64,000 nt of DNA from Saccoglossus kowalevskii. Taxonomy: Eukaryota > Hemichordata > Enteropneusta > Harrimaniidae. The notes under the pieces are model-generated. The model searched no databases. It had not been told where the DNA came from and saw only the letters and a list, made by a program, of their open reading frames with translations. Where the stretch lies: contig NW_003131853.1 in assembly GCF_000003605.2 (NCBI RefSeq), positions 340,917-404,916 on the forward strand, in the 5' to 3' direction. This document shows, one piece after another, positions 4,951 through 55,295 of the stretch (positions are counted from its first letter, which is position 1; every line of letters starts with the position of its first letter). Position numbers and translations under genes: made by a program.

Positions 4951-5405
4951 GTGTTGGCGTTTCGTTCCATTCTATTCATATGCTAATGTGTACTCGCTCA
5001 GTGTTGGCGTTTCGTTCCATTCTATTCATATGCTAATGTGTACTCGCTCAGTGTTGGCGTTTCGTTCCATTCTATTCATATGCTAATGTGTACTCGCTCA
5101 GTGTTGGCGTTTCGTTCCATTCTATTCATATGCTAATGTGTACTCGCTCAGTGTTGGCGTTTCGTTCCATTCTATTCATATGCTAATGTGTACTCGCTCA
5201 GTGTTGGCGTTTCGTTCCATTCTATTCATATGCTAATGTGTACTCGCTCAGTGTTGGCGTTTCGTTCCATTCTATTCATATGCTAATGTGTACTCGCTCA
5301 GTGTTGGCGTTTCGTTCCATTCTATTCATATGCTAATGTGTACTCGCTCAGTGTTGGCGTTTCGTTCCATTCTATTCATATGCTAATGTGTACTCGCTCA
5401 GTGTT
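4951..5405. repeat. Perfect 50-bp minisatellite, nine units
   Basis: Units start with 'gtgttggcgtttcgttccat' at 4951, 5001, 5051, 5101, 5151, 5201, 5251, 5301 and 5351. All nine read identically at exactly 50-bp spacing. A tenth unit breaks off after 'gtgtt' at 5405. Each unit contains 'catatgctaatg', which includes the octamer-like ATGCTAAT. Complete identity implies recent expansion or continuing homogenisation. Between the repeats there are no variable spacers, so this is not a CRISPR array. Confidence 0.97.
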
Positions 5406-32390: not shown

Positions 32391-35300
32391 GGCATTTAAT
32401 TCTTATGGAAGTCGTGAAACACACACGCAAGATCGTACTGAATTTGCATTGCCTAATTATGATAGGGATGACACACATCTCGCAAACAACAAGAAGAGGG
32501 ACATCAAGTTTAAATCTAGTGATGGTATGAAAGATTTGAAAGAGAAATCGTTCATTGAGATAACGCGTAACTTTGGGAAGAGTACTACAACCCACGGAAT
32601 ACCAAGAATATTCCAGTCATCGAGCTATCTCGGTAGTTGCGTATGGGCTCTGATATTCTTCACTTCGTGTGGCTGTTTTATTTGGCAAGCAACTACACTC
32701 ATTTTACAGTATATGGAATATGGCGTCACTGTTAAGGTTCGGAAAACATGCATTTAATTGTTCACACCTGTAATTGCATTATATGAAACACATTGGTGAT
32801 TTCTAAGCTCTAAGAAACAATCGAATTTACTGTTGTCTCGTCTTCAAGTTAGCCCATTTATATCGGTATGACGCGTGTAATATATAGATTGCCAATATGA
32901 ACGACTCATCTCAAATGTGTGCTAACAGTAATTGTAACATTTTATTGCAGATTGACGTTGTTACAGAGAAGAGTTTACTGTTTCCAAGTGTAACAGTTTG
33001 CAATACTAACAAATTGCGGCGATCAGCAATCATGGAATCTACCTACAAAGACATCTTGATTGTGGATGATGACATAGTCAACCCGTATTATGGTCAGTAT
33101 ATACGTATCATTGCTAACGAAACCAGCCATCAAACCACTATTATGCTTTCTCTTTCTCCGTCATGATCAGAAAACCCATTTTATTGTAATAACTATGAAA
33201 CCTAGTATAATATTAATGTGGAAGGGATATACTACTTTATATTATTCTTACAGTTCCCTGTTTGCAGAGTGATTTTGAATGTGACAACAGTGTTTTATGC
33301 GTAAAACTGTATCTGGTGTGTGATGGTGTGAACAATTGCCAGGACATGAGCGATGAAGCTAATTGTACCTATGGTATGTACCTAAATTATGTAAATATAT
33401 TCCTCATTTCAACTATCGCTATGTAGCATGTGGATATTTCAAAGCCATAATTGTACAACGTTATGATAAAATCTCATACAACCATCCAGTAACACGTTAC
33501 TGGATCGTTGTATGATATTTTATTGAAAAATATTGTCTTCAGTAATTATCGTAGCTATGATTTACTCCAGTTTTCTCTGTTTTAGTGTACCTTACATTCT
33601 CATCGCGTACTTTTATAACTGTCACTTTTTACAGGTGACTGTGGCGATAATCAGTTTAAATGCACTGCTGGTGGTGATAAGGGCATTTGTATCGATGAAG
33701 ACTTTGTATGTGACAGGAATAAAGATTGCTATGATGGATCAGACGAGGATGACTGCGGTAAGTATACCTAAATTTGTTAATACTTTATTTGGAGGTTGGC
33801 CATGGTAGTATAAAAGAATATACATGTTCTATTCAACAGAATGTAAATCCAGGGAATTCAAATGTAAAAGTAAAGGTGGATGTATCGGGAAAGATAAATT
33901 CTGTGATGGTAATTTAGACTGCACGGATGGCACTGACGAAGACGAGTGCGGTAAGTTATACCAACCCATGTCAGTCACAGTATTACTATATACTATATTG
34001 AATTTGCTTCATATCACATTTAGAAAACATGGTTTCTGCGTGGTACGTTGGTTTAGGATTAAAGTTAATTTGGAATCCCGTATCCAAATAGTAGATACAT
34101 GGAATTATATGAATAAAATAAAATTGTATGCTCATATATTTTACAATATCATTATCTTATACATATGGCTAAATATCGATAATACTTTTATGTATACTAT
34201 ATTATAATTATACATCTGGCACCAAAAACAATAAAATTTACCCGTCCGTAAAACACCATATGGAAGCGTTAGAAAGTTCAAATGCTTTCCCTATTTGGAA
34301 TGTTTAAAAAAATAGATAGCCAAGAACTGAAGAATATTTACTATCTGCATGATAATGCATAAATTATCTTCAGTTATATAATTATACAACAACGCCACCA
34401 AATACACTTGATATTCATTACATTCATTTTAATCAGTAAATATTTAGTCCTTGTAATTGCTTACAAATATTAGTTGAATGAGTGTAAGTTGCGGACATTT
34501 ATAAAGTTTTTCTTACTCCCCCACAATAGTTTACATTTTCACTTAGAATTGGCATAATCAGGTATGCCGGTTCCAGTTCTAAGATTCAATTGATAAGAAC
34601 TATCGCTGATTTCCAGAGCTGGACAAAGTCTCTTCTCCTTTGAAATTTGATCACACGAATAAAGCAGTATCTTACGATTGCAGTCATAAAATCTTAGCTT
34701 ATGGTGGGTGAAATCTACTAGAATTCCAACGTGTAGGCCAGCAGGAAACTGGGAGCGTGGGCAGCTATCAATTGCTGACGCAGCGCTGATAACGTGTTGT
34801 TTATTCTTGTGGGCTACATACCAGTTTCCACCATTTGACGGAAGTCTCAGCGCCCATGATGAGCCGTCGCTACCTAGACAAAGATCTCTGTTGCAATTCT
34901 GTTTAGCAAGTCCTATTGCAATATCTCCACGATAGACTGATGCATCACGATCCGTATAGTGTGAAAGGCTTTCCCCATGCTGCTTTTCTGCAACCTGAGT
35001 GGTGACCTCCCAGTAATGGACACCTGTTGCTAGGACTACATCTGCCAGAACGGATAACGCCCGTCCATGAAACCGACCCGTACTGGCTTTCCCTTCTTCT
35101 TGCATAACCCAAAATCCACGTGGCCTGGGCTGATATATGACAGATCGTCCTGCACTTATGATAACCAGATCTTCATGAGCTGTCTCCGGATCAAGTCGAA
35201 ATGTCATAGCTGTGGGACAAAATACAGTATTTAAAGCGGGAGGGTTGTCACCTGCGCACGCGCGGGAATTGAGTCCCATGCGACGATAACAACACACGCT

Positions 35301-38300
35301 AAAAATGCAAAGGCTCATGGGTAGACGCTTGTTTGTAAACAATGACACGCTATGGCCAGCTGGCGCATGCGCAGGTGACGACTCTCCCGCTTTAAATTTA
35401 AATTTAAATCCAACGCGTATATTGTGTTACTGGGTGTGAGATCAACCAAGAAAATAAATTCACGATCTTTATTGTGTGTTGAAACTGTTGTCAAGTGATA
35501 CTAGTTATATTTTTGTATGACTATGCGGATTTAGGGGGAGGCGCGCCAGGCCCAAACAATCTCTTCGGCCATGTGATGAGGAGATTCAATAGTAGTAGCA
35601 CGCTTTACCCCGCCCATAGTTACCAAATTTCTTTATCCGCCAGTGATGACAATATATAAATAAATGCACCTATCTGTTTACATCATGGCAGTAAGAATAT
35701 AATTGAAACACAGTGATGATTGCACCGAATATATATACCAAAATAGGATTGGGTGGAGGAAGGTGAGAATCGAGTAAGACTTGACTTATGGTACCTTGTG
35801 GTCCTGTCCTTGCAGGAAATACATTACTCCATCCAGAGGCACCAGCTTTATTCCGAACACGTGCTTTAAAGAAATACTCCGAATCAAATGCCAAGTCTTC
35901 TTTGACTAAGCGGTATTCGTCCGTTTCCCTTTCATCGCCTTTACCACATTCTATCTTGAAGTAATCCCACAATCCACCACTCTTACAGACACCCATATCA
36001 TAAGAGTCGACGATACATGGTGCGTGTTTTATTGATAGATGTACGGTGTTCCGTACTTCAATGTGTCCTCCCATCCGTGGCTTTTCAGGAGCTAATAGCA
36101 GCCCGTGACAGAAAACATATTTCATTAATCATATTTCGACTTAAAGGTATTAAAAACGTATAATTTTGTTTAAATAAATAATAGATCGCCTACTCATACG
36201 TGATTTCAGTATTAAAAGTCCGTGCATATTTTAAAGTGGAATATTTATTTATTATTATTTGTCATTAATTTCGAATTCTGGTAAATTTACTAATATACAA
36301 ATATTACCTTTTATGGTTAGTAAGTCCATTTTTTGTATAATTTGTTTCTCATACTCTAAATTGAGGATCACGTGACTAAAATCATCCGCTGTGTTCGGCT
36401 GAAGCTGGGGACACGAATCTATCGCACAATTCAACCTAGCAGAACAAAATAAATACTTAAAAGTTAAACATATCAGTAAGTTGATGTGTGATGTTATTGT
36501 AGTATATTATATTTACATGTGAGTAAATAAACATGTTCTATTCCGACAGTCGTAGTACGATTTAATTTTAATAGAAATAACTTAAAGAAATTTAATTAAC
36601 ATGTTTAATTATAAAACTTTTTTTAACACAATTGCATTATGCATTACCTGTCGTCCAATGATGCTCCCGTCTGTTGAAATGAACAAAAAAAAAACAATTT
36701 TAATTTCTGGAACAAAATCAGTAAAGATGGGTGTACGTGCCTTGGTTAAACTAACGTCGGCTTAACTGCTTTGTCAGTAACCAAAATTAAATCAAAACTA
36801 AAGAATTCTTTAGTTCCCTCATGTACGCCATGTGTATACATAATTCATGCAACACAGCCTTATTGGTTATGATCAAAAAACGTACAATAAGAAAAAAGGA
36901 AAATGACCACTGCTAGAACACGCCCCTCAAAATAAATCAGTCAGTATGGTCCATAATGAACATTAATTCAGCAAAACATCGGTAATCACAATGATTGGTA
37001 ATTACAACAAGAGGTTGCGGTCAATGACCCTTCATTGTTTGTCATTTGTATAATCATAGCAAGGATACTAAATTTACCAATAGCAGCGCAGCGGGTACCT
37101 CCTCTTTCAACACTTCTCTGGTGTATTGTATCAATCCCGCCGTGTTATGCAGTTTATCTTGACAGGCCATATTCTGTTGCTTTAATAATAATAGTTTCCT
37201 CGCCGTTTCTTCAGATATCTTTGTGTGCATAACTCTCTCCCTCTGTTCCAGCATGGCTTTAATCACTGCAAATTCTTCTGATATTCTTTGATGCATTACA
37301 GCTGCATTGGTCTGTGGTAAAACACAGAAATCCATTTTGAATTAAACAAAGTATACCCCATCTTAATCTTTGAGGGGGTACTGCATAGACAATTTCTATA
37401 TGTTTGTGCGACGCTGCCTGAATTATTATTTGTTTTCTTCTGATATATATCCGTAATACTGTTATATGACATTGATATATTCATGTTGTGCTATATACCT
37501 GTATAGATTCACCTTTTCTTTCTAGCGTTATTATAAATTCGTTAACATTCGCCATCTTAGATACAAGCTGAGCCAAGTTACTACTAAGTGTCTCCTATAA
37601 AATGAACATTGACAATTACATGTTAATCAATATATTGTATGTATAGTTGTATGATCATTCGCCATGCTAGCATTGGCCTATTGCATTTGCATGCAAATTA
37701 TATTGACTTTTTCTCAGCCCTGACGCCATACCCGGCTCGCGATATGATTGTTGTTATATGCACCTGTGCCCAAATACAGAAAACAGCATTGTATATTGGT
37801 GTTGTTGCTACACACTCACAGAATTGAATGAAATAAATAGATATTTTATGATTGGACATTTTACATAAATTACAATGCGGCATTTACTATCATATTAGTA
37901 CTCCCTAGTATGTGTTTATCTTCCGGGGATTTATTTGCAAAGTTTAAAAAGCACTCTAAATCATATACTAGTACCTTCATGAGTTTGTATGACGTCTTTA
38001 ATTCCGCTACCTGGTGACCTTTATGACCCCCAAATCTATCACACAGATAGCAGACCGGTGTCTTGCACTGCACGCAGTACATCTTAATGAGCTCGTCGTC
38101 ATGTTCGGGACAGTACACGTCCTTGCGCTTTGGGTTACGGGTAGCTTTCACCAGTTTGTGTTTGGAAAACACACCTTTACTCGGGTGATACGTGCGTAAA
38201 CACCGGTCACAGTAGGATACGCCGCACTGTATACATGTTTTACTGGCCTTAGCACCCCCACTGTCAGCACAGACGTCACACGCGACACCTTTAACCTTGA

Positions 38301-41300
38301 CTGGCCTCCCGTCTGTCGACTTTTCTTCCTTGTACCTTTCAATTATATTGTCTAGTAAAAAGTTCCTGGGTAGACCGTCTATCCCTCTTTTATCCAGTTC
38401 CACTGTAAAGCGACATGACGGGCAGACGAGACGTGAGTGTCCAGATTTCTGATTGGAGTTGCGCTTCAGAACATCGGGCAAACAGCTTCGACAAAAACTG
38501 TGCGCACAAGGCAACAAGAGTGGGTCTGTATAAAGCTCCATGCACACTGCACACGATAGTTCTCGTTCCAGTGAGTCGCCCATTTTTTGTTGAATATGTA
38601 CGTGACAACTGAAAAAAGGCTCAGTTCACTAACAGAGCAGTAAATATGTAGCTGGAGTGGAAATGAACTCTAAAATCAGCGCCAAGTTATAGAGTGTATT
38701 TAACCACCGTGTACGAACCGGGGAAACATCATATAACGGAATACAAAGGGCTATTATGGCCTAGATCCATGCTATTCACGAAATGCAGACAATACCAATT
38801 CCAGTGTTTCCTATTATTGGTTTCAAACCACTTGCTATTGTCATGTCGATGGGGTCAAACCATCGCTATTGTTACCTGTGGAAATAAGGAGAAGTTCTGG
38901 AGGTTGTCCCGTACAACTGCCAATCATCGTTGGGTGAAGCGTTTTGTACTTTTTATATAAGAGACTGTGTGATTCGATGGCGACGTCAAAACAACGTGCG
39001 TGTTGACAATACATTCTGTTCAGCTAATTAGATTTGTTCTGACGTCACTGTTGTAACAATAAGTATATCAATTACTTTAATGTTATGCTTGCAAGTTTCT
39101 AAATTACAACTGTGTTATATGTGTGTGTATGTTGACAACATGGTAACCAAGTAATTATATACTACTATATCACTGAACGCGGCACGACACTTATTTTAGT
39201 TATTTTAACGGTACATGTGGGATGGGTGGTTGCACTCAAATTATGGATACCGACCTGAGACACGTGAATTAATTGCCCCTACCACTCGTCATAATACAAT
39301 CTGAAACCGTGACCTCTCTTTAATATATGCCAGTATGTCGCCACCTGCTAAGAATCTATTTAGTAAGTGCAATGGTACGCAAGGCTGGGTCTGTATAGCA
39401 TTAGAAACTACCAGGCGTACATGACAAACACAACCACACACACCGTATGTACTCACATTACACAATTATTTGTTATTATGTTTTATTCTCCCTATAGCCC
39501 ACGAATAATAACAATTGGCATTTACGGGCAGTTTTATTATTTTTTACTGTAGGCATACAACTACGTGTTTAAGAATTCTGGGATTTTCAGTCCCGTAATA
39601 ATGCTCAGCTTAGCGCTGGAGTTAGTAAGGTCAAAGGCTGGGCACAAGTCAGTAACTTTGGCATTTACTGCATAAGAAAGCAGTAGTTTTTCTTTATAGA
39701 AAAATTCCAGTGCTCTCCGCTGATAGTCCAACAAAATGCCAAATCGACGCGTTGAATTGCACTCTAAGTTGTGTTTAATCCTTGTACACCTGTCATTGTG
39801 ATAGCCACGGGCAGTGATGCCCATTATTTCAAGGCACCATGACGACTTATTTGTTCCAAGTTGTTGGTTTCTGTGACAGTCTGCCGTAGCAACGCCAATG
39901 GCGTATGACGTTGCACCCGATTGGCTGGCCTCCACTTCCCAGTAATGCGCGTCGTCAGATAATATCACATCACCCAGAATGCAATGCACGTTTCGTACGA
40001 ACCTCATTCCTAGTTGTATTTTCTCGCTTACTTTCATTTTTTTGTGGATGTAATCTTCCCTTCTTTTGACAGTTTTACCATCCTCCGATAAGAGCAACGC
40101 CGGATGTGCTGTCTCTTCGTTTAAAATGAATTCAGTTGCTAAAAACGAAAAAAAATAATGCTAATCAGCAATGACCAAATTGGAGTTTCAAATGTAGAAG
40201 TCAACAGAATCTCATATATGTTCAAGTAACTTTTTCTTACCTACTGTTTTAGTTTTCACTGCAACAGTTTGTGACCATGGTGAGGTGCCAGCTACATTGG
40301 TCATACACACACAGAAATAGTATTCACAGTCGTAATCAAGATTGCCAAGATGGATATGATCTTCTAAACTCGCCCCTGATTGGTCTGCCATAACCTCCCA
40401 TCTCATTGTCATCCATTGACCGTTAATTGGTTGATAAGCCACGTCATACCATTTGACGTCACAGGGTTCATGGTTGACAGATAACATAACACCATTTCGG
40501 TTCATAATTTCTGTCTTCGTGATGATGGGAACTTTGGGTTCTAAAGCAAACGAATGTTATTATTCAACATATTAAATTTAATTATAATTGTCTATTCAAA
40601 TTGAATTATTTTCTTATATTGAATATAATTTCTATGCATTCCGATCATTCTTCAGAAAGTCGAGGCTTTCACTAACCACGATACAGTTTTCAATGTCAAA
40701 CAACTGCTAGACTGTTTTTAACTTTGTTACCTGTAATTTTTCTTGCTTGCATTTTTTTAATCCCTCGTATTGCTGATTTGACATCGATTATGATGTGGTC
40801 AAAGGTCAAGAAGGCCTCGTTAAGTTGGAGATTTGGACTGTTTGACAACTCCGATGTTAGTCTAGTATGCAAACATATGCGAGGAAATTTAAATACGAAT
40901 ACGATTGGTCAGTTATATATATGGTGATTATACGTGAAAAATAGCTTAAATTAAACGTGACAGTTACACTATGTATTATCAGTAATTAACCGGAAATGAC
41001 GTGACAAGTGACATCATAGTCACCCTATAGCACCAGTGTACAGTCGAAGGTAATATATCTGTATCTCTTCAGTTGTAACTACGAAATTACGGGATATTAA
41101 TTCGTGGGTTTCCCAAGAGATTTCATTAAAAAATCCAATTTGTTTCATGCTATATATGAAATAAAATTGCTGCGAACCTTACCTGTCATCCAGAGACGCA
41201 GCCGACTGTAATAAAACATAATTGTTAATGTCTGTTATAACTTTAGTATAATTGTTTAACATAATGGCATGTGCATATTTCGAGGGAGTTCCAATTTAGC

Positions 41301-44300
41301 AACTATTCTATATGTTTACGTTGCAACGACAAGGAACATGGAATAGTCGTTAAATGAACAAGATGCCAGTGTTCACCGTATACATTATTCATTGTGGTTG
41401 TGTTATTAACATTAGTATTTTACCGTAAGAAATATTGACGTTTCATTGTTGTTTTCGAGAACTACTTGGGCGAACTGTACCAACCCCGATAGGCGGCGCT
41501 GTTTATCTTGACACATCGTCATCTTTTGTTGGATTTCATACAGTTTATTAGTCATGTCCTTTGCGATGACCTCATGCATCTCCTGCTCTTTTTGGTTTAT
41601 CGTCGCGTGGAGGCGCTGACAAGAATTCGACACTTGTTCTTTCAGACTGGCTGCATCTTCCTACAAAAACACACAGGTGGTAATTTCTTAAATAAGTTCT
41701 TTCTGTAGACTGTAAAATGGAAATTTAAATTTACGTTACGTTAGAAGAGCAACTCACCTGAATCGAATCTCGTCCATTTGACAGAGCTATGAGAAAATCG
41801 TCAATATCGCTCTGCAGTCCAATCATTGTAGCCACGTTATCGCTCATCTGTTCCTGTGGATATAATGACATTTTTTGATGACTCGATTGCATAACGTTTT
41901 GCATACGTGATCTAACAGTTAGTATAAACACTGGAATGATATGGCGAAGGTGATTTAAAATAAATAGCACTTTTTACATAAATAGACGATATAATTCATG
42001 CCACTTATCCATCATTGATATTATCAATTATCGTCACGATCATTGTGTAATGAAATGAACCACTTGTCAGGTTGTAATGATCGGAGCCGTCATTTCCATG
42101 ACGTGTTTATTCATTTATACAATCTCTGTATACCTTGATAGTCTTAAAAGCGCTATGTGCCTCACGGACATGGTGTCCTTTATGCTCCCCAAATCGCTCA
42201 CATATGAAACATATCGGTATTCGACAGTCATCGCAGTACAGTTTTAACCCTTCGCCATTGTGTACAAAACACTGTAATGGCTGGATGCCATACGTGCGTT
42301 GTACAGGACCATCATGAGATAGCGGTACCAGCTGATGGGTGTTAAATACACCTTTGTTTGGGTGACACATATTTCTACAGAGGTCACAGTATGTGACTTG
42401 ACACTGGACACACTTTGTTATAGCAGGCTTATCATCACATATTTCACATGTCTGCCGTACTATGGACGTTTCTTGTTGTTTGTATCGGCTAACGATACTA
42501 TCAAGAAGGAAGTTACGGACCAGTCCATTTAGTCCCGTCTCACTGCGCAGTATAACTTCCCGTCTACAAGTCGGACAGTTTATAACAATTCCATCTGAAT
42601 CTTTAGAATCTGTTGGTACATCGCACGGTTCGTCGGCCTCTGGTCTACAATCACCACCATCGTCGCCGTGGCATGTGCTTGTAGCTGTGGCGGCAAATCC
42701 ATTGGATTTCGCTATCAAATCTTCCAAACATTTTCGACAGAACGTGTGAGCACATGGCAAAAGAAGAGGTTCGTTGTACAACTCCATGCATATTGTACAT
42801 GAAAGCTCTCTCTCCATAGGATTTTCCATCGCAATCCCCCAAACAAATTTAAAAGTTATAAGTCTAACCGTTTTATGTTAGATGTCACAAAAAGCGTCGC
42901 TCAATAACAATCTCGTTAATCCAGACGGTTAACAGGTGGTTTAATATTTAACGTTGAGTTCGAATTGCTCCCTCTGGCGACAATATGCTATATTGATATT
43001 TTGTGTTGTCTGTCCATAGATAAGTACAACCCTACTGATTGTCAGGGTCTGTCATGTGACGAAGACAAATGTATACCCTCAAGCTGGAAATGTGATTCAT
43101 TCGCTGATTGCGCTGATCGAAGTGACGAAAAAGATTGTGATACGGACGCAACAGGTATATACCACACTTACGCCCCTATTTCTTGTTCGTGAGTTAACGC
43201 TATTTTGCCACGGATACGTTTTACACCTGAATTTAAATACCATCAATCTTCCAAGAATTTCATTAACCCCGTATACTGTTTTCCGGAATCCAAATCTTCG
43301 AGAGAGACCATTTAGTCATAAATATATGTACAGCATATATTTTCAATTCTTCTTCATTTTTTGTCACCGGGACTCACTACAGAAAAATGGTAACGCGAAT
43401 ATATATTTCTTGTGATTTATTATCATTTGTTCACAGCGCTTGTTATTTGCACGTCATTTGAATTTCTATGCGATGCAACAAATTGCATACCAGAGTACTG
43501 GGTGTGTGATGGTTTCAGTGACTGTGGAGATTCCACCGACGAGGCGAATTGTGGCACTGGAACTGGCGATGGAACAGATGGTAACGTATTGAATGTAAAA
43601 TTGTATACTTGTAATCATGTGACTCGTTTTAAATTGTCCAGCGCCGATGTCATTTTCGGTCACTATTTTGCTGGTTCGGTCGCCTTCATCATGGTGCTGA
43701 TGTGCGTATTGAATTGTGGGATACAATGGTTTGTAAAACAATGTACTTCCTTCGTATGATTGCTCGTTATAACCTGATTAAAGCGCAGTGGTCGCCGCGC
43801 AGCGCGTGTTCGAATTTCATGTAAATAGACAATGCATTTTACATGCGTTGTATACGTCGCTATGAGTCCCATATCGAACAGGACGCGACACGACGACTGC
43901 CGCCCTTTAATTTGAACTGAGACTTCACTGTTTAGTTGCGTATTTACGATTGGTAGATAGTTTTGCATTCAAGCTATTTTTTTTTCAGATTCGGGAAACG
44001 ATTCTGTTTATATCAATGCACACACAGTCATGGTTACTAGAGGAACTTCTAGCAACCGTGACACAATTCACAGTTCCTCGACAATTATGTGCAATATACA
44101 CATATATAATGAAATTATGTTATGATACATACTTACTGTTTTATTTGTTTTTACTGTTTTGTATTAATATACCAGAGATATTTTTGATGATTTATATTCT
44201 CTGCCGTACTATGCAGCGTTTATATTTGCAATTTCAGGAACTTGTGGTCAAAGTGAATTTCTGTGTGATACCAACAATTGTATTCCTGATTTTTGGGTAT

Positions 44301-47300
44301 GTGATAATTGGGATGACTGTATAGACGGCACGGACGAAGCAAACTGCAGTAAGTATCAATGAGTATTATTTCTATATTCACCATATCTCCAGTACCATTT
44401 GTACCATAATTCACATTTTAGATATTAAACTTGAATACTCTCGTTCATTGCGAATCAAATGTATTATGAACATTATAATTTCAATCAAATAAATTGTTTG
44501 TAAATCCTATTGCCCTCTTGACTTGCATAATTAATATATTAATACACGTGTAACACGTTTTATGGTACCACATTTACAAGTAATTGCATATTCTAAACTA
44601 AATTCGTATCATTGATACAGTTATACTAGGTTTGTACTAGTGTAGACCTTCCAAGTACATGAGTGTGTAGTTCAGTGCACTGTCTGTGTATAGGAATTGT
44701 GCTTGTAAGTGCATTTGTATTTGGAATATTTTGCGCCGACAGCAATTTAGAGTAGAAATTGTCTCACCCCTTATCGTCACCACATTCCTCTCAATTATTC
44801 TCCACTCCATGGTCATGGAAGACAGTGTTTTATTGAAATTACTATAGCATATGCTAATGCATACATTGACTTAACAGCTGGATGCGGCTCTGGATTTGAG
44901 TGTGGTGACGGTTATTGTATTGTCAGTGGATGGATATGTGATGACTTCATAGACTGTGTAGATGGTACTGATGAACTGGCAGAAAACTGTCATTTACGAG
45001 GTAATGCAATGTCTTCTAAATCCAGGTACATGCCAACAATGTCTTCTTTGACCGAGGTTCGAATTACCCACAATCCCACGTTTTCATATTGTTCATTGTG
45101 TTATTCCGTACATTCATATGCATGTTTCATTTCACGGGCAGTCAGTACGAAAGAAACCAAATGGCGGCTTACAAAAATAAATCTGCATAGTGAGATCAAG
45201 TAAAACTAAATGCACCGTCAACACAATGGCTTACATTGGCTTACTCCCGGCAGTCATTTGAGCCATTTGTTTATTCCTGTAAATATAGTTCCACCAACAT
45301 TGTAAAGCATAGCCTAGTAGTAGGATGTGGAATGGGAAAAAAGTTAGAGGTTTTCTGATGAAAATGATGACCCAAAATGTGTCAGTCACAATCACGGTAG
45401 TGTGTATTGAAAGCGAGGCAGTTTAATTTGTGAAATACGCGAAGACTTTAAGTAAACGCACACTTCCGGGGTTCACTAGTCACCTAGCAACCATGGGGTC
45501 CATAAATTATGTTTTAAAATGGGTAACAGGTCCTTGTTTGACAATTTTAGAATCCAAAGTTGTGTGGATATACTAGTAATGTGGGTAATGCCACATCGAT
45601 TTAACCAGATTTTCTGATGCTGCAAAACCTGTATAATCAATTTAGAGTGGGTTTTCCTTGAAAATTTGCTTCAATGAGTGGGTTTTTCGATGAATTTAAG
45701 CTCCCGATTCGTGATTTTCACCAAAATTTGGTGCCTCACATTCTCGTATATAAATAATACAACGATTCTCCCTGGATCCCTTTCAGACAACACGTTTTTA
45801 CTAATAGTACACTTGCATATATGTATGTTATTGATAAGTAGAATAATATTGGATTAAACACATTGATCCACATTTTTAGATTCTTCGTCAACGTCAGTAT
45901 CATCAGCATCGGAATTGGAATCGGATATTGATTTGTTTTGCTGTGCGGATTCTCTAGAATGCCTCCCGATATCAGCCGTATGTGACACATTTGATGACTG
46001 TTCAGATGGGAGCGATGAAATTAACTGTGATTCAAATGAAGCAACGACGAAATCAACCCCATCAACTGCTGCTCCAGATCCACCAGGTTATTCACTTCAT
46101 TCCTTCACTTTAGTTTTTCAATAACGCCATTCAACTCAAATAAACTTATGATTCGCCTGGACGCGAAACTACTGAAGTGAATTATGTGAATCCATGCACT
46201 TCGGAATACTATTGTAGAGCGCTGGCGAATGTAATTTAAACACAGACAAATAGGAAGCCGAAACGATCGCCAACGTGCGGTTGCGCTGGAAATCTGAAAA
46301 ATTGAAAGTTTATTATATTGAACGAATCAGATATATCATGTCATAGTCCCTATGACACCAATACTGCTATATGATTAAACTCGGAGTGTAACTTTAATTT
46401 ATATATTTATATATCATTGTAATTAGCTCCACCTAATTGCACGGAGAGTGAGTTTGCCTGTGCATCTGGTCAATGCATACATCTATATGGCGAATGCAAT
46501 GGTGTTGTTGACTGTGATGATTCTACTGACGAGGTGCCAGAACAATGCATGTACAGATACCAAGGTAACCTTCTCGATTTACAGATAAATGTTCATGTTA
46601 GTTTTTGTGTGATGCTAAACAAAGAAAACTCACTGTCTCTATTGTTTACTTACTTACACAATCTCTGCCGAGAGCAAAATATAAACTGCGACTGATACTT
46701 TGTTCGATAACATATTTTGCAGTGATGAGAACTTATTATGTGTCAATGCACATATTGAATAACGTTTGCAACACCTTTAATACTCGCAATAAATTCAGCT
46801 AACGCCCATTCTTCCAAGCCCCGACCGCTTACTGCTGTCGGTGGCGTGGTTGAGGGTGCTTAGAGAATGTCATACATCCATCATGACATCGAAATTAATG
46901 TAGCACAACGAAGATAAAGAGAATGAGATATTCAGTCGACTAACTGTGCATGTTATTTGTAACTAAACATGTACAAATATGTTTTTTCAGAGGGAAGCGT
47001 GAATTTGTTTCCCCAGGGATGGAATATTCCCTATTTGATATTAACAGACGACGAAAACATTTATGAAGATTTCAAAAATAACTTTTTTTCGGATCATGGA
47101 TTCGATCGCGTGAAAGGTGAAAATCCACCGGATTGGTCTGGATTTCAGACTTTCAGCTCCAGCCCTGACTACAGCGACATGGAAGACGTCCTGAAGTTGT
47201 CTACTGAAGAAATTGCACACTTGGGTCATCAATTCGATGATTTCATCTTGCAGTGTACATTTGATCAGAAAAGCTGTGATATGAAGTATGTGTTTTATTT

Positions 47301-50300
47301 GTATCCGCCACTCCTATATGGTTCAAGTTCACCCATCACCAAGAGAGTCTGGTTTCCCATTTTTTTTATTTTTCAATTGCACAGCGGGAATTTGTTAACA
47401 ACATACTAAGATTCATATTTTTTATTTTTAAATACATGTTCACATTTTTGAACGCCAGAGCTTCAATTATGGGTTCAAACATGTCAAGCGTGCCACAATG
47501 TTACGTTTCAAATAATCTCAAAATGCAAAACGTGCGAGTAAAAAAATTAAGTCCCACGTAACTTGGTATTTAAAGAAATGGCAAACGTCAAAAATGAAAC
47601 ATATTTCAAACATATGAAGTATAACAATGCCAAACATGCAAGTCACAAATGTAAACGTTTTAAAAATACCATATGTGCGAGTATAAGAAGCTCAAAGTTG
47701 GTTTTCAACAATAATAAATATAAAAGCCATTAACGTAACTGTTTCAACAAACGGGCTATTTCGAAAGTAGGAGTCAAAATTATATAATACTACATTATAG
47801 TGGCATATTTGATTCTCGTTTTTTTGTTTTCAAACTGGCACTCTATGTATTGACAATATTTTTTTTTCAATTCTTTAGTGACTTCATTACAATCCAGGAC
47901 GACAAATATGGCAATTGCTTTCAATTTAATCATGGTAGAAACTCAACAGGCCGGTATGCTAGCAGAACAGGTGCAAAATATGGTAGGTATAGCTGAGATT
48001 AACGTACAGCATGAGCTGAAAACATAAAACATTCCTGTAATGTACACCCACCACTTACTGCGGAAGTCAAGCAAGTGTTCAAAACGTGATAAAAAAGACG
48101 CCGCCATCGGTGCGCGTGGCCCAATCAATTGACTAGCTGTCAGCCTAACTTGTCAAACAAAACATCGACGCGCCAAACTGAAAAGGTTGACGCGCCAAAA
48201 TAAAAATGTTAAACCACGCCCACTGCTTCTGAGCACATCAAACTCGTCAGCTGACTACTAAACATGGCCGGTAACGTGAGTAACACGGGCAGAAAATTTA
48301 AACGAGGTGCTGAAACATCGGGGCATTCGTAAAATATGGCAGCGATCCGTTCATTGTAGATCAAGCAAGGGCAACAGAGGTTTTTACCATAAGCTAGGTG
48401 ATGGTGACTTGGAGCTGATCGAAACTTTGAAAAGATTACAACCATCTATAACGTATCGTGCTATTGCAGACCATATCAATGAGCATGGTGAAGTTGTAGA
48501 AAATGTTTCAATCACTACTATTTCGCGGACAGTTCGAACCCGATTGTCAGGCGGCCGATGGACTTACAAAACACTAACACCGGTAGCCTTGGAGAAATTC
48601 ACGGACGCTAACATAGCATATTGCGATGAATATGTAAATTTTCTGCACACCCAAGCCCCAAATACACCCGTATTACCCCCCCCCCCCCGAGCTAAACCCG
48701 GTCGAATTTGTATCTGGGAAACTTAAGAAAACACTGAATATAACGCGCTAGCCAGAATTGATCTTCCCTTGCGATACTGGAAGCATTACGAGAAATCAAA
48801 CCATCCGATGTGCTGGGATATTACCGAGCTGTTGGGTTCTTAAATATCAATGCTGACGCTTATGAACTAAAAAAATGTTCCTGGTCACAATGTATAGATG
48901 ACAAAAATAATTAATGTCAGCAATGTATTTTTCACAAAACGACTGCAATCCAAACTGCCACATATGGGGACTAAATAACGATATATTGAAATATTTTGAA
49001 CTAATAACTTTATTGATCTTGGTGTAAAAATGCACTGTTGTACAACACTTTACAATGTATTTTGTTTATGCTTTGTCATATTTGTAAGTTTATTGTGTTA
49101 TTGCTCTGCCAGCAAACAATTCTCTTTGGGTTTCAAATTGACAATTTTAGTTTCAACTGAAAACATACTTATTCATTTTTTTCAAAACGCTCTTATCATA
49201 ACTATTTGCCATCAGCACAAATATGTTACCCCTAAAGTTACAAAATAATAGCAAATAACACGAACTCTCAATTATGTTAACTTTATGCAAACAAAATGTC
49301 CATTCCCTGCCAACAATTTTAGTAACAAACTCACCAATTACTGTAACTATGAGATACAACTACGTATACGTAAAGTTGTGTCCAAAATTTAGAAAAAATA
49401 TATTTTCTTGTGTCAGCTCAATTTATTTGGGTTTTTTTTCATCAATTTAGATGAATCAACGAGAAAAACTCAAAAATAATAAACATAATGATACTATATT
49501 TTACCATGAAAACAAAATATAGTCAGTATTCACAAGTCACCTAACATCCGAGCGGATTCATATAATTTTAATAAATTATTAGTTTCATCTCCTGGATCAT
49601 CTTGTATCCCAGTGTGCTGGTTATTGTCAACTCAATGCCAGTAGTGGTACTGTTTTCCGACGCTTGTTTAGTTTCCTTATTTACAGTATTTGAACTGCCA
49701 AATTTCCTATGGTTGTCAATATTTGTAGGCTGAAAGGGGACGATAAGTCATTCTCGNNNNNNNNNNNNNNNNNNNNNNNNNNNNNNNNNNNNNNNNNNNN
49801 NNNNNNNNNNNNNNNNNNNNNNNNNNNNNNNNNNNNNNNNNNNNNNNNNNNNNNNNNNNNNNNNNNNNNNNNNNNNNNNNNNNNNNNNNNNNNNNNNNNN
49901 NNNNNNNNNNNNNNNNNNNNNNNNNNNNNNNNNNNNNNNNNNNNNNNNNNNNNNNNNNNNNNNNNNNNNNNNNNNNNNNNNNNNNNNNNNNNNNNNNNNN
50001 NNNNNNNNNNNNNNNNNNNNNNNNNNNNNNNNNNNNNNNNNNNNNNNNNNNNNNNNNNNNNNNNNNNNNNNNNNNNNNNNNNNNNNNNNNNNNNNNNNNN
50101 NNNNNNNNNNNNNNNNNNNNNNNNNNNNNNNNNNNNNNNNNNNNNNNNNNNNNNNNNNNNNNNNNNNNNNNNNNNNNNNNNNNNNNNNNNNNNNNNNNNN
50201 NNNNNNNNNNNNNNNNNNNNNNNNNNNNNNNNNNNNNNNNNNNNNNNNNNNNNNNNNNNNNNNNNNNNNNNNNNNNNNNNNNNNNNNNNNNNNNNNNNNN

Positions 50301-53300
50301 NNNNNNNNNNNNNNNNNNNNNNNNNNNNNNNNNNNNNNNNNNNNNNNNNNNNNNNNNNNNNNNNNNNNNNNNNNNNNNNNNNNNNNNNNNNNNNNNNNNN
50401 NNNNNNNNNNNNNNNNNNNNNNNNNNNNNNNNNNNNNNNNNNNNNNNNNNNNNNNNNNNNNNNNNNNNNNNNNNNNNNNNNNNNNNNNNNNNNNNNNNNN
50501 NNNNNNNNNNNNNNNNNNNNNNNNNNNNNNNNNNNNNNNNNNNNNNNNNNNNNNNNNNNNNNNNNNNNNNNNNNNNNNNNNNNNNNNNNNNNNNNNNNNN
50601 NNNNNNNNNNNNNNNNNNNNNNNNNNNNNNNNNNNNNNNNNNNNNNNNNNNNNNNNNNNNNNNNNNNNNNNNNNNNNNNNNNNNNNNNNNNNNNNNNNNN
50701 NNNNNNNNNNNNNNNNTTTTCGGTTCTATCGAAGTTATTAATTAAGATAAATTTTTCGAATAATGAAATCCCTGTATATTGTATTTATAATTTGTTTCAG
50801 TTAAATTTAAACTTTGAGGGTTGCAAGTATTACTTTTAATTAATGTATGTATATGCATGTATGTATTAACTGTCTACGTGCAGCTTTCCATGAGGGTTGT
50901 TCAGAACCTGGTCATTTCATTGAATAAACCCTTTAATGTCGAATTCTCAATTTTGTGAGGTATGTTGATATTGTGGATGAGTAATGAGAACTGCCGAATA
51001 TACATGTTTTACATATTTACAAAATTAAAATGCAATCTAAATGGTAATGATTTGCGCACCATTTAACTGAATATCATTCACAAACGCTTTCTATCTTTAA
51101 TGATAGGTTTGAAATTGACTCTATTCACCGAGCAATACGAATACATTAGCATTTATGGTCGTGATTCTGGGGTACGTGTGGCTATTCAACCTCTCTTCGT
51201 CCCGGCATTCCCCGAGGATGAAGGAGTCACGATAAGACCTGGATCTATATCATCTATCGGCATAAGAGAGGTAAATTATGTTGATATTAATCATACACTC
51301 AGATCAACATTCAACTTCGTATTGATTAAATGTTTGGTATATTTACATACAGCTTAGTATAGAATGTAAGATCTTAAGACATTGAAATCAAGACATTATT
51401 TAAATCAAAGGTATGAACCCGAAATAAAATGGTACTTATTTTCTGTATATGACTCCAAATTGCACGTCAACTGAAATGATATAATTGGAGTTTTGATATA
51501 CTTGCGTGATTCAGAGCCTATTATAGCAATATCATTGTGGTACTCACTTCGCATGTACCTTGCCGCATTTCGTTGACACCTCCATATACTTATCTTCGTT
51601 TTGGCATTACCAGTACTGTTCTCATTCCCATATGTGTATCGATGTATTCGATATTACCAGCAGCGTTCATTATATTCCAGAACGTTATTCATCGTAAACC
51701 ACATCCCTATGGAAACTGCACACAGAATGCCGAGTTTGATTCCATGTATGGAAACGATTTCAAGTATACGAAATTGGTAAGATTTAAAAAGTTTGAAAAA
51801 TGCTATTTATGGAAATTAGAGTATATGGTCTCTGTGTAACAAAATTGCCTGGGTTAGCATGGTTTGCATTATCATCACCATCATACATTATATGCAACCT
51901 GGTTGAGCTGTGGGTTGGAAAGATGTTTTCATCTGTGTCCCCCCATAATCCAGGAAATTGTTGTCAAGGCTGGTTTCTTGTTTCTGATTCTAGCATACTA
52001 GTAGTCACCGGCCCAGACCTGTGTATAACAAATTGTAAGGGCAACATAAACATGTTTTTTGGTCTTGCAATGACACACTACACTTGCCCGTCGCATGCGT
52101 ACTATTTATAAATGTATGTTTTATGGCCCGTAACAGAACAAGTTTATATTACAACACTATTCTAGTCAAAAGAATTGTGTCCCCAACGCATTATGTTCAA
52201 TAATAATGACGGTTCTTTATGTCTTCAAATGCGATTTAAGAAAATTGTTTAATTATGTATATGTGTATGTATGAATATAATCTGATAATTGAAAAAAAAA
52301 ATCCCACAAATACTCAGTAGAACACCAAGTGAATTGCGAGAATCCCATAATGCATCTCATTTTTTACGTACACAATGATTGGCAATAAAATTATGACGTA
52401 AACATAAAACTTTTAACTTATACCCAGTCTCACTTGGTGTGACATAGTTTAATTGAAGAGCCAATGAGGGCGAATATTTTTGAATATATTTAGATAATTC
52501 TGTTTCATAAATTATTCGGTAGGAACATATGTATTGCAGAAAATGTCGCAGTATTTGTTCGATAAATTGAAGTACAATTCTCACGCATCATTGACGTATC
52601 TATACGAACTGGTATTCGATGCGCATGAGTGAAAATGTTTCCATTATTGCCTAACACTTGCTCTTTTTATGATAAATCATGACATTATATTGTTTTTAAT
52701 CAGAATGCATTTTCAAACAATTTCAAATTATTTAAACCTACTGAAAGTTATCCTCATTGCTTTTTATTTTGATATAGGCGTGTGAGTCAACCTGCTTGCA
52801 GCATCAGATATTAAAACACTGTCACTGTGTTGATACTCATCTCATTCAGGCACCAAGATGTCATCTGCTTAATCGGACGCAAGGTAAGGTATATATCACG
52901 TAAGTTGTTAGCGCAATGCATTGTGGTCATTGTGGTTTCCTGTCGACGCAAATCTCGCAGCCTGATTGCACACAGATGACAATAACCAACAACTTTCAAC
53001 ACGCTCGACATTTTAATGTACCAAAACGCACCCCGTTTAATAAAATTAATTTCATTTCATATTTTAATTATCGTCATATAAATAAATACGAGTCTAAATG
53101 TGTCCTAAACAGACTCTTTATGAACAAGTCATGACTTGTTATTTGTTTGTTATTATTTATTTCCAGATGTGTGTAAGCAATTGATGTACTTTTTTTACAA
53201 AGCTGATCTCCTGCCATGTGATTGCAAGCAGTCATGCGAGTGAGTACATGCTTACTAGGCGTGCATGAATACAACACCCGAACCCATCCCAAGATACGGT

Positions 53301-55295
53301 CGCTTGGACTGTATAGGTACTTTTTTCGAGTCCTGAAATCATGTAATCGAAAACACTCCACGTCTACTTTCCACTTGATATACAAAGCATGCCATTATGA
53401 TTCGTGACTGGTCGCAGGTGGCTTTCAATGTGACATAATTTGAATACAAACACACAAATCGGGTAACCTCAACTATTATGTGTGTTATCACTCTTTGGAT
53501 TGTAGCACACAAGTCCCCGCGTGTATGCTGATGTATGCGAGTTTTACAAACTATGATGGCAGCGGTGTTAGACGCCGTCGAAAGGAAGCATAGCCAACAA
53601 CCCGGTACCATGATCCGCACTGCATCGCAGGGGCTGATCCAGCAAAATGTATTGGCTTAAATTTTACGGAGCGTAAATCGCAGAGAAGCTATGCGTTATC
53701 CAGATGCATTTTCATGCGTTGGGGGGGGGGGGGCATGGCCCCCTGGCCCCCCTCTGGATCCGCCACTGTTGCATCGTGATTCTGGTGTACTACAAATACG
53801 GCATTTGAAGCAACCATGAATCAACAAAGCTAAAAGTGAAACTACGCAGCTTCGCTGACGTCATAAACATCGACTATAATCAATTGAGCATATAATTTAA
53901 CGCAATGCTACGTTTTCTTTTCAGTGAAAAGTGGTACGAAATAACGCTGTCGCAATCACTGTGGCCATCAGACAGATATTTAGTAAGTATATGTTGACAT
54001 TTTATGAGTGAGACGCGGGATGAATAGTTAAAGGAACACGTGATATAAATAAGTTCTGTATAAGGTGCTGCTCTTTTTTTATACGGTTTAAAACAATAAC
54101 ACGAAACTCTTGTGTAAATTGGATTGTAAAAGGTCATGTGAGTATAAAATGTTCATATATCATTATTACGCATTTCTTTCTCGCGGAGACCAAAAATATC
54201 CAAACGTTAAATTAAATTACAAAAAAATGAAATAAAAGAAGACGTGGCCGATATGGGGATCGAACCCACGACCTCAGCGTTATTAGCACCGCGCTCTAAC
54301 CAACTGAGCTAACCGGCCGTCTTGACATAGCTTGTATTTTTAACGCTCAAATCATCTGGGCATCAATCACTACTGATCTGTTTATATTATTTTAATATTT
54401 CTGTTTTCATTAGAAACACCTTCTCAAAAACATCCATGGTATTAACGACAAAACGAGGAATATCAACGACGAAAAAGCTGTCAGGTGAGTGCGCCCTCTG
54501 TGGCTAGTATGCTTAAATTACAGGCTAGACTTGTACTTTGTTTCATGAACCTTTGTGTTAAACGGCCTGGGACAAAGTACGAGTCTAACCACAGACAGCG
54601 GATCGAATGCGCAATTATTCAAATCACAATCCCTCTAGAGGGACTGTGTTCAAAACAAGACTAAGGACGAACACGGTCTCTTATGAGAAAATAGTAACTG
54701 GTAATGTTCGTCAAACTACTGTTACGTATCATTTTGATTGACTGAGAATTTTAATCAATTTCAGCTCTAACTTGGTTCGCTTAGAGGTCTACTTTGAAGA
54801 GCTGAACTACCAAGACGTGTCCGAGATTCCTGCATATGGTGTAAGTATACAATACTCGATATATTTGGCGACTACCTGGGATACACCGTAACACTGGCAA
54901 TTAATCATACCCCACAATAGCATTGTCTATTGCCAATCAGACAGTACATCGCAAGATACACCTCGGCAATCATATTCCTCGGCCAACCAGTAAGCGGGGT
55001 GCACTGGGTGATATCACACTTATGTTCAAATCACAATTTAGAAAGTCGTTAATTGTTTTATAACTCTGTAATATTCTTAATACATTACACGGGTGGTATA
55101 GTTCAAATTATTAAAACAAGGGCGACTGCGATCTCTGTATATCTTTGATAATTTTATCTTATTTTACAGCGTTCGGATTTATTAAGTGACGTCGGAGGCA
55201 GTCTAGGGTTGTATATCGGTCTGTCTATCATCACAGTCTGCGAGTTCCTGCATTATATCTCACAAATTATTAAGTTATTTTTTCGAAGATTATGA
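32391..55295 (+). CDS. DEG/ENaC-family channel with nine LDLa domains
   Basis: Exons: 32391-32736, 32951-33092, 33254-33373, 33635-33757, 33840-33950, 43020-43154, 43437-43580, 44238-44348, 44878-45000, 45880-46086, 46427-46564, 46991-47285, 47879-47982, 51107-51270, 51681-51776, 52778-52883, 53167-53239, 53925-53982, 54414-54484, 54765-54840, 55170-55295. All join in frame to about 955 residues and a TGA stop. The order is: cytosolic His-Gly gate motif (THGIPRI, H68-G69), TM1 (~79-102), FPSVTVCN, nine LDLa modules (163-566), the palm/finger core ([56 protein letters not shown]), YFEELNYQ and [10 protein letters not shown], then TM2 with the G-L-S selectivity filter (931-933). The family forms trimeric sodium or cation channels. 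The first exon begins inside a codon, so a 5' exon is missing, or translation starts at M46 (32527). The exon 13-14 intron contains an assembly gap. Confidence 0.9.
33254..33950 (+). other. LDLa modules 1-3 of the channel
   Basis: Three exons of 120, 123 and 111 bp each encode one LDL-receptor class A module. Each has six cysteines and the calcium-cage ending: [20 protein letters not shown] and [10 protein letters not shown]. Each is flanked by phase-1 introns, so exons can be added or lost without frame change. Confidence 0.92.
33466..33523. repeat. 58-bp foldback (28-bp inverted arms)
   Basis: The arms 33466-33493 and 33496-33523 match at 26 of 28 positions around a 2-nt loop; the core is CCAGTAAC-AC-GTTACTGG. 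The foldback lies in the channel intron between exons 3 and 4. It looks like two transposon ends joined head to head, or a very small palindromic MITE. No clear target duplication was seen. Confidence 0.75.
34539..38583 (-). CDS. MID-like TRIM E3 ubiquitin ligase (TRIM copy A)
   Basis: Minus-strand exons: 38583-37975, 37594-37499, 37311-37078, 36670-36648, 36435-36308, 36091-35795, 35209-34539; all junctions are in frame, giving 685 residues. Domains: a C3HC4 RING (C11, C14, C26, H28, C31, C34, C54, C57), B-box 1 (~102-142), B-box 2 (C158-H190), a coiled coil (204-313), a COS-like segment (314-364), FN3 (365-463) and a PRY/SPRY (464-685, with HYWEV). This is the class-I layout of MID1/MID2 (667 and 685-735 residues in human), and the RING and B-boxes align best to MID. 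The 96-bp and 23-bp exons are hallmarks of TRIM genes. Known role of the family: a microtubule-associated E3 ligase. The whole gene lies antisense inside an intron of the DEG/ENaC gene, about 1 kb from its paralogue. It could equally be called TRIM36-like. Confidence 0.92.
35235..35391. mobile_element. 157-bp MITE flanked by TTAA
   Basis: Terminal inverted repeats begin AGCGGGAG and stay alignable for about 29 bp, with 3 mismatches (AGCGGGAGGGTTGTCACCTG on the left). TTAA lies immediately outside both ends (35231-35234 and 35392-35395), as expected for a TTAA target duplication of the piggyBac or Kolobok type. It sits 25 bp upstream of the SPRY-exon acceptor of TRIM copy A. It has no coding capacity. 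Confidence 0.8.
39561..42829 (-). CDS. MID-like TRIM E3 ubiquitin ligase (TRIM copy B)
   Basis: Minus-strand exons: 42829-42134, 41853-41758, 41660-41424, 41205-41183, 40861-40731, 40540-40241, 40138-39561, giving 686 residues. The domain order equals that of copy A: RING (C11, C14, C26, H28, C31, C34, C85, C88), B-box 1 (C128-H165), B-box 2 (C187-H219), coiled coil, COS-like segment, FN3 and SPRY ([13 protein letters not shown]). Exon sizes follow copy A closely, including the 96-bp and 23-bp exons and the same phases, so the pair arose by tandem duplication. Copy B carries about 31 extra acidic and Cys-containing residues in the RING loop between C34 and C85. A polyadenylation signal lies about 22 bp past the stop (AATAAA on the minus strand, 39538-39533). 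Predicted role: a cytosolic, cytoskeleton-associated ubiquitin ligase. Confidence 0.92.
43020..46564 (+). other. LDLa modules 4-9 of the channel
   Basis: Six phase 1-1 exons encode further LDLa modules. Their calcium-site endings are [52 protein letters not shown] and [12 protein letters not shown]. Module 8 (45880-46086) is longer, with Ser-rich and Thr/Pro-rich linkers on either side. Phase 1 at 33950 matches phase 1 at 43020, which supports continuity across the 9-kb intron. Confidence 0.92.
47983..48264. other. Channel intron 13, left of transposase remnant
   Basis: This is the start of the intron between exons 13 and 14. It may include the left end of the Tc1-type element, but no terminal inverted repeat was identified. 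Confidence 0.3.
48265..48914 (+). pseudogene. Tc1/IS630-type transposase remnant, core deleted
   Basis: The longest frame, 48307-48726, shows a helix-turn-helix region ([31 protein letters not shown]) and the following [18 protein letters not shown]. It then runs through a poly-C tract. Just beyond it, in another frame, is [13 protein letters not shown], the conserved block near the last catalytic acid of DDE_3 transposases. The C-terminal segment ([18 protein letters not shown]) follows and ends at 48914. The stretch holding the first two catalytic acids is absent, and the frame changes at least twice. A weak N-terminal start ([15 protein letters not shown]) is at 48265. It is a dead DNA transposon inside a channel intron. 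Confidence 0.75.
48915..49756. other. Intronic AT-rich DNA, no gene seen
   Basis: This is intron 13 of the channel gene between the transposase remnant and the gap. It could contain the right end of the Tc1-type element; none was recognised. Confidence 0.4.
49757..50716. other. Assembly gap, 960 N
   Basis: This is an unbroken run of N within the intron between channel exons 13 (ends 47982) and 14 (starts 51107). Exon 13 joins exon 14 in frame (Y-G|LKLTLF), and the family sequence is continuous there, so no coding exon need be missing. Confidence 0.99.
53628..53768. mobile_element. 141-bp hAT-like MITE
   Basis: The left end reads CAGGGGCTGATCCAG. The right end, on the other strand, reads CAGTGGCGGATCCAG. 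The 8 bp outside are CTGCATCG on the left and TTGCATCG on the right, 7 of 8 identical, consistent with the 8-bp target duplication of hAT elements. A long G-run and 'ggccccctggcccccc' lie near the right end. It is in the channel intron between exons 17 and 18. Confidence 0.75.
54245..54318 (-). tRNA. tRNA-Ile (anticodon AAT)
   Basis: On the minus strand the 74-nt sequence starts GGCCGGTTAGCTCAGTTGG and ends ATCGGCC plus discriminator A. The acceptor stem pairs 7 bp (one G-T), the D arm is GCTC/GAGC, the anticodon loop is CTAATAA with AAT at positions 34-36, and the T arm is GTGGG-TTCGATC-CCCAT. T-runs for Pol III termination lie just downstream (opposite 54234-54237). No CCA is encoded, as usual in eukaryotes. 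It lies antisense in the channel intron between exons 18 and 19. Confidence 0.95.
54523..54590. repeat. 68-bp foldback with 19-bp inverted arms
   Basis: The arms GGCTAGACTTGTACTTTGT (54523-54541) and ACAAAGTACGAGTCTAACC (54572-54590) match at 17 of 19 positions around a 30-bp spacer. It is in the intron between channel exons 19 and 20 and is probably a small MITE or its remnant. Confidence 0.65.
54625..54648. mobile_element. 24-bp palindromic insertion
   Basis: CACAATCCCTCT|AGAGGGACTGTG is a palindrome with one mismatched pair. It is flanked by TTCAAAT (54618-54624) and TTCAAAA (54649-54655), 6 of 7 identical. The arms match the CACAGTCCCTC terminal repeat of the element at 57916-58303. I read it as two ends of that family joined head to head with nothing between. 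Confidence 0.55.

What the first reader, a model, noticed from the sequence alone, without database searches (positions are those of the whole stretch)
32391..55295. DEG/ENaC channel with nine LDL-receptor class A modules inserted in its extracellular loop
Seen: a full set of DEG/ENaC landmarks (HG motif, TM1, FPSVTVCN, cysteine-rich domain, GLS filter in TM2), split by nine calcium-cage LDLa modules between the first palm strands and the finger. Known: ENaC, ASIC and degenerin subunits usually lack LDLa repeats, while LDLa modules bind lipoproteins, proteases or ligands in a calcium-dependent way. Inference: this may be a ligand-tethered or matrix-sensing channel, with calcium-dependent ectodomain folding. 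Each module is a phase 1-1 exon, so splice isoforms with different numbers of modules are possible.
Basis: partly seen in the sequence, partly recalled or inferred. Interest (0 to 1): 0.8.

Follow-up and report, generated by a model that had tools for sequence, protein, structure and literature searches.

The report
Sodium channel carrying lipoprotein-receptor modules
An animal gene encodes a degenerin/epithelial-type sodium channel subunit into whose outer "finger" nine calcium-binding modules of the kind found in lipoprotein receptors have been inserted, at the place where the human epithelial sodium channel keeps its protease-controlled gating segment, so the channel may be opened by something it catches or is tied to outside the cell.

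Summary
A 21-exon, plus-strand gene model (32391-55295) has consistent splice phases at every junction and gives 955 residues with no internal stop. Pfam finds one full-length DEG/ENaC core (PF00858) and nine LDLa modules (PF00057). The nine modules are exons 3-11; all are phase 1-1 and divisible by three, so any number can be skipped in frame. Joining exon 2 straight to exon 12 restores an unbroken channel (profile 1-455 of 455). The core keeps exactly 14 ectodomain cysteines; the array adds 54 cysteines and a net charge of -77. It has no furin site. Modules resemble those of megalin, VLDLR and LDLR. TM1 and the pore exons lie on opposite sides of the array, and exons 1-13 are free of assembly gaps, which argues against two genes or a misjoin. 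I found no paper describing such a channel, but no animal genome or transcript could be searched. That ligand binding or tethering gates the channel is inference. Verdict: a new variant of the DEG/ENaC family.

The parts
32391..32736 (+). exon 1: N-terminus, HG motif, TM1 (true 5' start open)
   Evidence: gene model; aligned to ASIC/ENaC TM1
32951..33092 (+). exon 2: first palm strand, FPSVTVCN, first finger helix; ends phase 1
33254..33373 (+). exon 3: LDLa module 1 (one cage D-to-N)
33635..33757 (+). exon 4: LDLa module 2
33840..33950 (+). exon 5: LDLa module 3
43020..43154 (+). exon 6: LDLa module 4 (Trp type)
43437..43580 (+). exon 7: LDLa module 5 (Trp type)
44238..44348 (+). exon 8: LDLa module 6 (Trp type; modelled at pLDDT 91.8; 64% identical to module 5)
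44878..45000 (+). exon 9: LDLa module 7 (Trp type)
45880..46086 (+). exon 10: Ser-rich linker, LDLa module 8 (first Cys displaced), Ser/Thr/Pro linker
46427..46564 (+). exon 11: LDLa module 9 (one cage D-to-N)
46991..47285 (+). exon 12: rest of the finger (helices 2 and 3); begins phase 1
   Evidence: low-confidence model
47879..47982 (+). exon 13: YGNCFQFN, palm/beta-ball
51107..51270 (+). exon 14: palm/beta-ball
51681..51776 (+). exon 15: palm to thumb
52778..52883 (+). exon 16: thumb, cysteine-rich
53167..53239 (+). exon 17: thumb, cysteine-rich
53925..53982 (+). exon 18: [19 protein letters not shown], lower palm
54414..54484 (+). exon 19: knuckle helix
54765..54840 (+). exon 20: [14 protein letters not shown], lower palm
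55170..55295 (+). exon 21: TM2 with GLS filter, short C-terminus, stop
49757..50716 (.). run of N (assembly gap) in the intron between exons 13 and 14

Best explanation
Shown from sequence: one gene model encodes a DEG/ENaC subunit with a complete channel core, and a 398-residue array of nine LDLa modules sits in the loop between finger helices alpha1 and alpha2. Inferred: the subunits form a trimer, so up to 27 calcium-folded, acidic modules stand out from the top of the ectodomain. Modules 4-7, with the Trp-plus-acidic-cage signature, catch basic (Lys-rich) partners such as an apolipoprotein-like, matrix or secreted protein. The load or displacement is passed through alpha1/alpha2 to finger and thumb, the same lever that ENaC's GRIP segment uses, and changes open probability. 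Module number, and so reach or avidity, can be tuned by skipping phase 1-1 exons. Calcium is needed to fold the array, so extracellular calcium would also set activity.
For: Consistent phases at all 20 introns and no stop over 955 residues. Full-length ASC match when exon 2 is joined to exon 12 (1-455/455, 296.8 bits) and nine LDLa stretches. Core closest to ASIC2, ENaC alpha and ASIC1 among solved structures. All 10 introns flanking modules are phase 1, against 2 of 10 elsewhere (chance about 1e-7 to 6e-6 for phase-1 frequencies of 0.2-0.3). The core keeps exactly 14 ectodomain Cys; the array adds 54 = 9x6 Cys and net charge -77. GRIP lies between alpha1 and alpha2 and acts on finger and thumb (PMC6197857). 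Array matches megalin, LRP4, VLDLR, LDLR. Module 6 folds at pLDDT 91.8 and matches solved LA modules of ApoER2, VLDLR, LDLR and megalin, several in ligand complexes.
Against: No transcript, protein or current was seen. No orthologue in another species could be fetched. The Lys-binding signature is from general knowledge, and no ligand is known. There is no direct evidence that the array touches the gating machinery; it could hang freely.
Confidence: 0.5

Rival explanations
1. The array is real and translated but passive: an outward spacer or a calcium-dependent folding, trafficking or clustering element, with gating done by the ordinary DEG/ENaC stimuli (protons, peptides, leak).
For: The finger without the array is still about 40 residues longer than in ASIC1 between the matched parts (query 144-239 against chain 114-169), so the core may work alone. 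Ser/Thr/Pro linkers at module 8 and phase symmetry allow an array-free isoform.
Against: The calcium cage motif is kept in all nine modules (seven with all acidic ligands), which suggests selection for folding and binding rather than bulk. The insertion point is a known gating loop in ENaC.
Confidence: 0.3
2. The array is an endocytic or scavenger head: the channel subunit doubles as a receptor that binds and takes up ligands, with the array placed in the channel by chance.
For: Closest arrays are those of endocytic receptors megalin, VLDLR and LDLR.
Against: The intracellular tail after TM2 is only a few residues, with no NPxY-type uptake motif there. Pfam finds no EGF or beta-propeller release unit with the modules.
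Confidence: 0.08
3. Two genes or two transcripts: the LDLa exons belong to another gene and are never joined to the channel.
For: A 9069-bp intron with two opposite-strand TRIM-like genes lies between exons 5 and 6. Many AATAAA/ATTAAA sites occur there in AT-rich DNA.
Against: TM1 is on the 5' side and pore and thumb are on the 3' side, so any working channel transcript must run across all LDLa exons. No signal peptide or membrane anchor exon of their own was seen among the LDLa exons. Modules sit on both sides of the long intron, and the introns around exons 1-5 are short (82-261 bp).
Confidence: 0.07
4. Assembly artefact: a misjoin placed an LDLa gene inside a channel gene.
For: There is one N run, in the intron between exons 13 and 14.
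Against: Exons 1-13, which hold TM1, all nine modules and the finger, are on gap-free sequence. Phases match at every junction, including the one across the gap.
Confidence: 0.03

Closest known systems
ENaC alpha/beta/gamma subunits (vertebrates)
   Same: Same core landmarks; a large extra piece between finger helices alpha1 and alpha2 (GRIP, PMC6197857); GNC, WPS and ELNY motifs of ENaC type and Ser before the DVGG/NLG stretch
   Different: The extra piece is nine LDLa modules, not a beta-stranded, protease-cut GRIP; no RXK/RR site; below the NCBIfam ENaC cut-off, 298 against 428 bits
ASIC1/ASIC2
   Same: Best solved relatives by sequence (ASIC2 169 bits); GLYIGLS resembles GLFIGAS; 14 ectodomain Cys
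   Different: ASIC has a short finger and no array; YHHVTKLD of ASIC1 reads EYGVTVKID here, without its histidines
Nematode degenerins (MEC-4, DEG-1)
   Same: Almost the same profile score as ENaC (295 bits); the matrix-tether model of gating (PMC10148893)
   Different: Far below the deg-1 cut-off of 598 bits
FaNaC peptide-gated channels
   Same: DEG/ENaC relatives at 148 and 128 bits
   Different: No LDLa array reported in the papers found; lower score than ASIC and ENaC
LDL-receptor family ligand-binding arrays (megalin/LRP2, LRP4, VLDLR, LDLR)
   Same: Tandem LDLa modules with Ca cages
   Different: Those are single-pass receptors with EGF and propeller units (general knowledge); here the array is a loop in an ion channel
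LDLa-bearing ENaC-activating proteases (TMPRSS3, matriptase)
   Same: LDLa modules functionally close to a DEG/ENaC channel (PMC7177719)
   Different: There the LDLa is on the protease; here on the channel itself

Membership tests
DEG/ENaC (ASC, PF00858) | full-length ASC profile match | tested here: met
   1-455/455, 4.3e-88 with the array left out; 1.2e-80 with it
DEG/ENaC (ASC, PF00858) | HG motif, two TM helices, FPxVTxCN, GxS filter | tested here: met
   residues 67, 79-105 and about 922-945, 126, 927
DEG/ENaC (ASC, PF00858) | seven conserved ectodomain disulfides | tested here: met
   exactly 14 core Cys outside the array, aligned with those of ASIC/ENaC; bonding itself not shown
DEG/ENaC (ASC, PF00858) | trimeric Na+-permeable, amiloride-sensitive channel | not testable with these tools
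   needs expression
ENaC subfamily (TIGR00859) | score above curated cut-off | tested here: not met
   298.1 against 428 bits
Degenerin deg-1 subfamily (TIGR00867) | score above curated cut-off | tested here: not met
   295.2 against 598.45 bits
ENaC subfamily (TIGR00859) | furin-cleavable GRIP domain | tested here: not met
   no R-X-K/R-R anywhere
ASIC | phylogenetic placement in ASIC groups and proton gating | not tested
   no set of animal homologues could be fetched for a tree
LDLa domain (PF00057) | six Cys and Ca cage (D..D..DE) in each module | tested here: met
   nine stretches; 7 of 9 with all acidic ligands, modules 1 and 9 with one D-to-N; module 8 with a displaced first Cys
LDLa domain (PF00057) | LDLa fold | tested here: met
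   module 6 pLDDT 91.8, TM about 0.8-0.9 to LA modules, Foldseek prob 1.00, best E 1.1e-3 at 36 residues
LDL receptor family | EGF and YWTD propeller units, single TM, NPxY tail | tested here: not met
   only ASC and LDLa found by Pfam; two TM segments

The most novel reading that the evidence does not exclude
A ligand- or tether-gated DEG/ENaC channel in which a lipoprotein-receptor-type array has taken the place of the GRIP gating segment, with splice-tunable module number, so that binding of a lipoprotein, matrix or secreted protein directly opens or closes a sodium channel.
Probability: 0.3. Interest if true: 0.85.

Novelty: new variant of a known kind. Interest (0 to 1): 0.58.

Why it matters
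It is an apparently undescribed architecture that joins two well-studied units at a loop already known to control gating. It gives a natural test of how the DEG/ENaC finger takes up large inserts and of the tether model of mechanogating. It also shows exon shuffling (phase 1-1 modules) building a channel ectodomain. The array can be deleted in frame, so function with and without it can be compared directly.

Tried and rejected
No whole genome is held for the window. The genome contigs and viral-contig scans with the channel core found no relative, as expected for an animal gene. Ten literature searches (PF00858 with PF00057, LDLa with ENaC, degenerin, ASIC and others) gave no paper on such a fusion; the ENaC-LDLa papers that bear on the subject concern LDLa-bearing proteases. 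Four DEG/ENaC papers read by term search mention no LDL or lipoprotein. The exon 12 fold was too poor to use (pLDDT 39.7). Recent duplication of modules 5-6 and 2-3 is not supported by intron similarity: apart from self-overlap, only the module exons match, at about 70-74%. Ks was saturated for most pairs. ENaC-side or ASIC-side placement is unresolved: equal scores (131.6 bits for the best stretch of ASIC2 and of ENaC alpha).

Full report
Gene model. I listed candidate coding stretches and splice sites and joined 21 exons on the plus strand between 32391 and 55295. All 20 introns begin GT and end AG, every phase matches its neighbour, and the product is 955 residues without a stop. Two short exons that the landmarks do not show at once were needed to complete the core: 53925-53982 ([19 protein letters not shown]) and 54414-54484 ([23 protein letters not shown]). 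With them the core aligns along its length with ASIC2, ENaC alpha and ASIC1. The start codon is open: exon 1 may begin at the acceptor before 32391 or at in-frame ATGs at 32347 or 32526.

Domains. Pfam gives PF00858 at 1.2e-80 and PF00057 at 4.3e-64 with nine stretches. With the array left out, PF00858 covers 1-455 of 455 positions at 296.8 bits, so the core is whole and the array is an insert. A strict LDLa pattern finds eight modules in the whole window, none outside this gene and none in 20 shuffles; the ninth (module 8) departs at its first cysteine. Module 6, folded with its eight sisters as alignment, gives pLDDT 91.8 and matches solved LA modules of CD320, VLDLR, ApoER2, LDLR and megalin. 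Foldseek E-values are only about 1e-3 because the module is 36 residues long.

Exon structure. Exons 3-11 each hold one module, each begins and ends in phase 1, and each is divisible by three. All ten introns that flank modules are phase 1, against two of the other ten. This is the classic sign of exon shuffling (general knowledge) and means that any set of modules, or the whole array, can be skipped without a frameshift. Modules 5 and 6 are most alike (64% of residues), then 2 and 3 (56%). Their introns do not match, so these duplications are not recent.

Position. The array lies after [27 protein letters not shown] (first finger helix region, my assignment by alignment) and before the rest of the finger. 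In ENaC the stretch between alpha1 and alpha2 is the GRIP domain, which holds the inhibitory peptides and acts on finger and thumb (PMC6197857). The remaining finger is about 40 residues longer than in ASIC1 and about 30 shorter than in ENaC alpha, judged from the unmatched parts. There is no furin-type site, so GRIP-like cleavage by furin is not expected.

Chemistry. The core has exactly 14 ectodomain cysteines (132; 655, 662, 678; 767; 788, 792; 801, 803; 814; 824; 839, 841; 845), that is, seven disulfides if they pair as in ASIC (pairing from general knowledge). The array holds 54 cysteines and a net charge of -77 over 398 residues. Seven modules have all acidic cage ligands; modules 1 and 9 have one D-to-N each. 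Modules 4-7 have Trp before the cage (SWKCD, YWVCD, FWVCD, GWICD), the form that in LDLR and LRP modules holds a ligand lysine (general knowledge of LDLR-RAP structures, not tested here).

One gene or two. TM1 and the first palm strand are 5' of the array; finger, thumb and pore are 3' of it. A functional channel transcript therefore has to run across the LDLa exons, and no signal peptide or anchor exon of their own was seen with the LDLa exons. The weak point is the 9069-bp intron between exons 5 and 6, which houses two TRIM-like genes on the other strand. Modules lie on both sides of it. The only assembly gap (49757-50716) is downstream of exon 13, so the join of array and channel on both sides is in gap-free sequence. 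Without cDNA, two transcripts cannot be excluded.

Relations. NCBIfam scores are 298 bits for ENaC (cut-off 428) and 295 for deg-1 (cut-off 598), so it meets neither subfamily's cut-off. ASIC2 and ENaC alpha tie in the PDB search. Some motifs (GNC, WPS, ELNY, Ser before DVGG) look ENaC-like, but I made no tree. A published phylogeny reports many uncharacterised groups in cephalochordates, ambulacrarians and protostomes (PMC10507113); this may be one of them. The library holds no paper that I could find describing LDLa modules in a DEG/ENaC channel. Automatically annotated database entries of this architecture may well exist; I could not search them.

Mechanism and odds. I put about 0.9 on the single-gene protein as described; 0.5 on the array being a ligand or tether handle that influences gating; 0.3 on it being passive. 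The steps from ligand to pore are inference by analogy with GRIP and with the tether model discussed for MEC-4 (PMC10148893).

Noticed in passing
34542-38625 and 39564-42877, minus strand: Two TRIM-like genes (RING, B-box, FN3 in the second, PRY/SPRY) nested head to tail in the 9-kb intron between exons 5 and 6; RING/B-box exons 38% identical
   Followed up: partly
10360-14030, plus strand: Ataxin-1-like gene, AXH domain split over two exons
   Followed up: partly
63305-63529, plus strand: Exon of an AMP-binding (probably long-chain acyl-CoA synthetase) gene at the window's right end; score below the Pfam cut-off
   Followed up: no
54245-54318, minus strand: Well-scoring tRNA match (62 bits) within an intron of the channel gene; may be a tRNA gene or tRNA-derived SINE
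   Followed up: no
4944-5405: Nearly perfect 50-bp tandem repeat, 9.2 copies at 99%
   Followed up: no
45880-46086: LDLa module 8 has its first cysteine moved next to the second (FCC), and its exon has three in-phase acceptors (45880, 45898, 45907)
   Followed up: partly
48280-48723, plus strand: Open frame with a weak HTH_32 match (below cut-off), probably a DNA transposon remnant in the intron between exons 13 and 14
   Followed up: no
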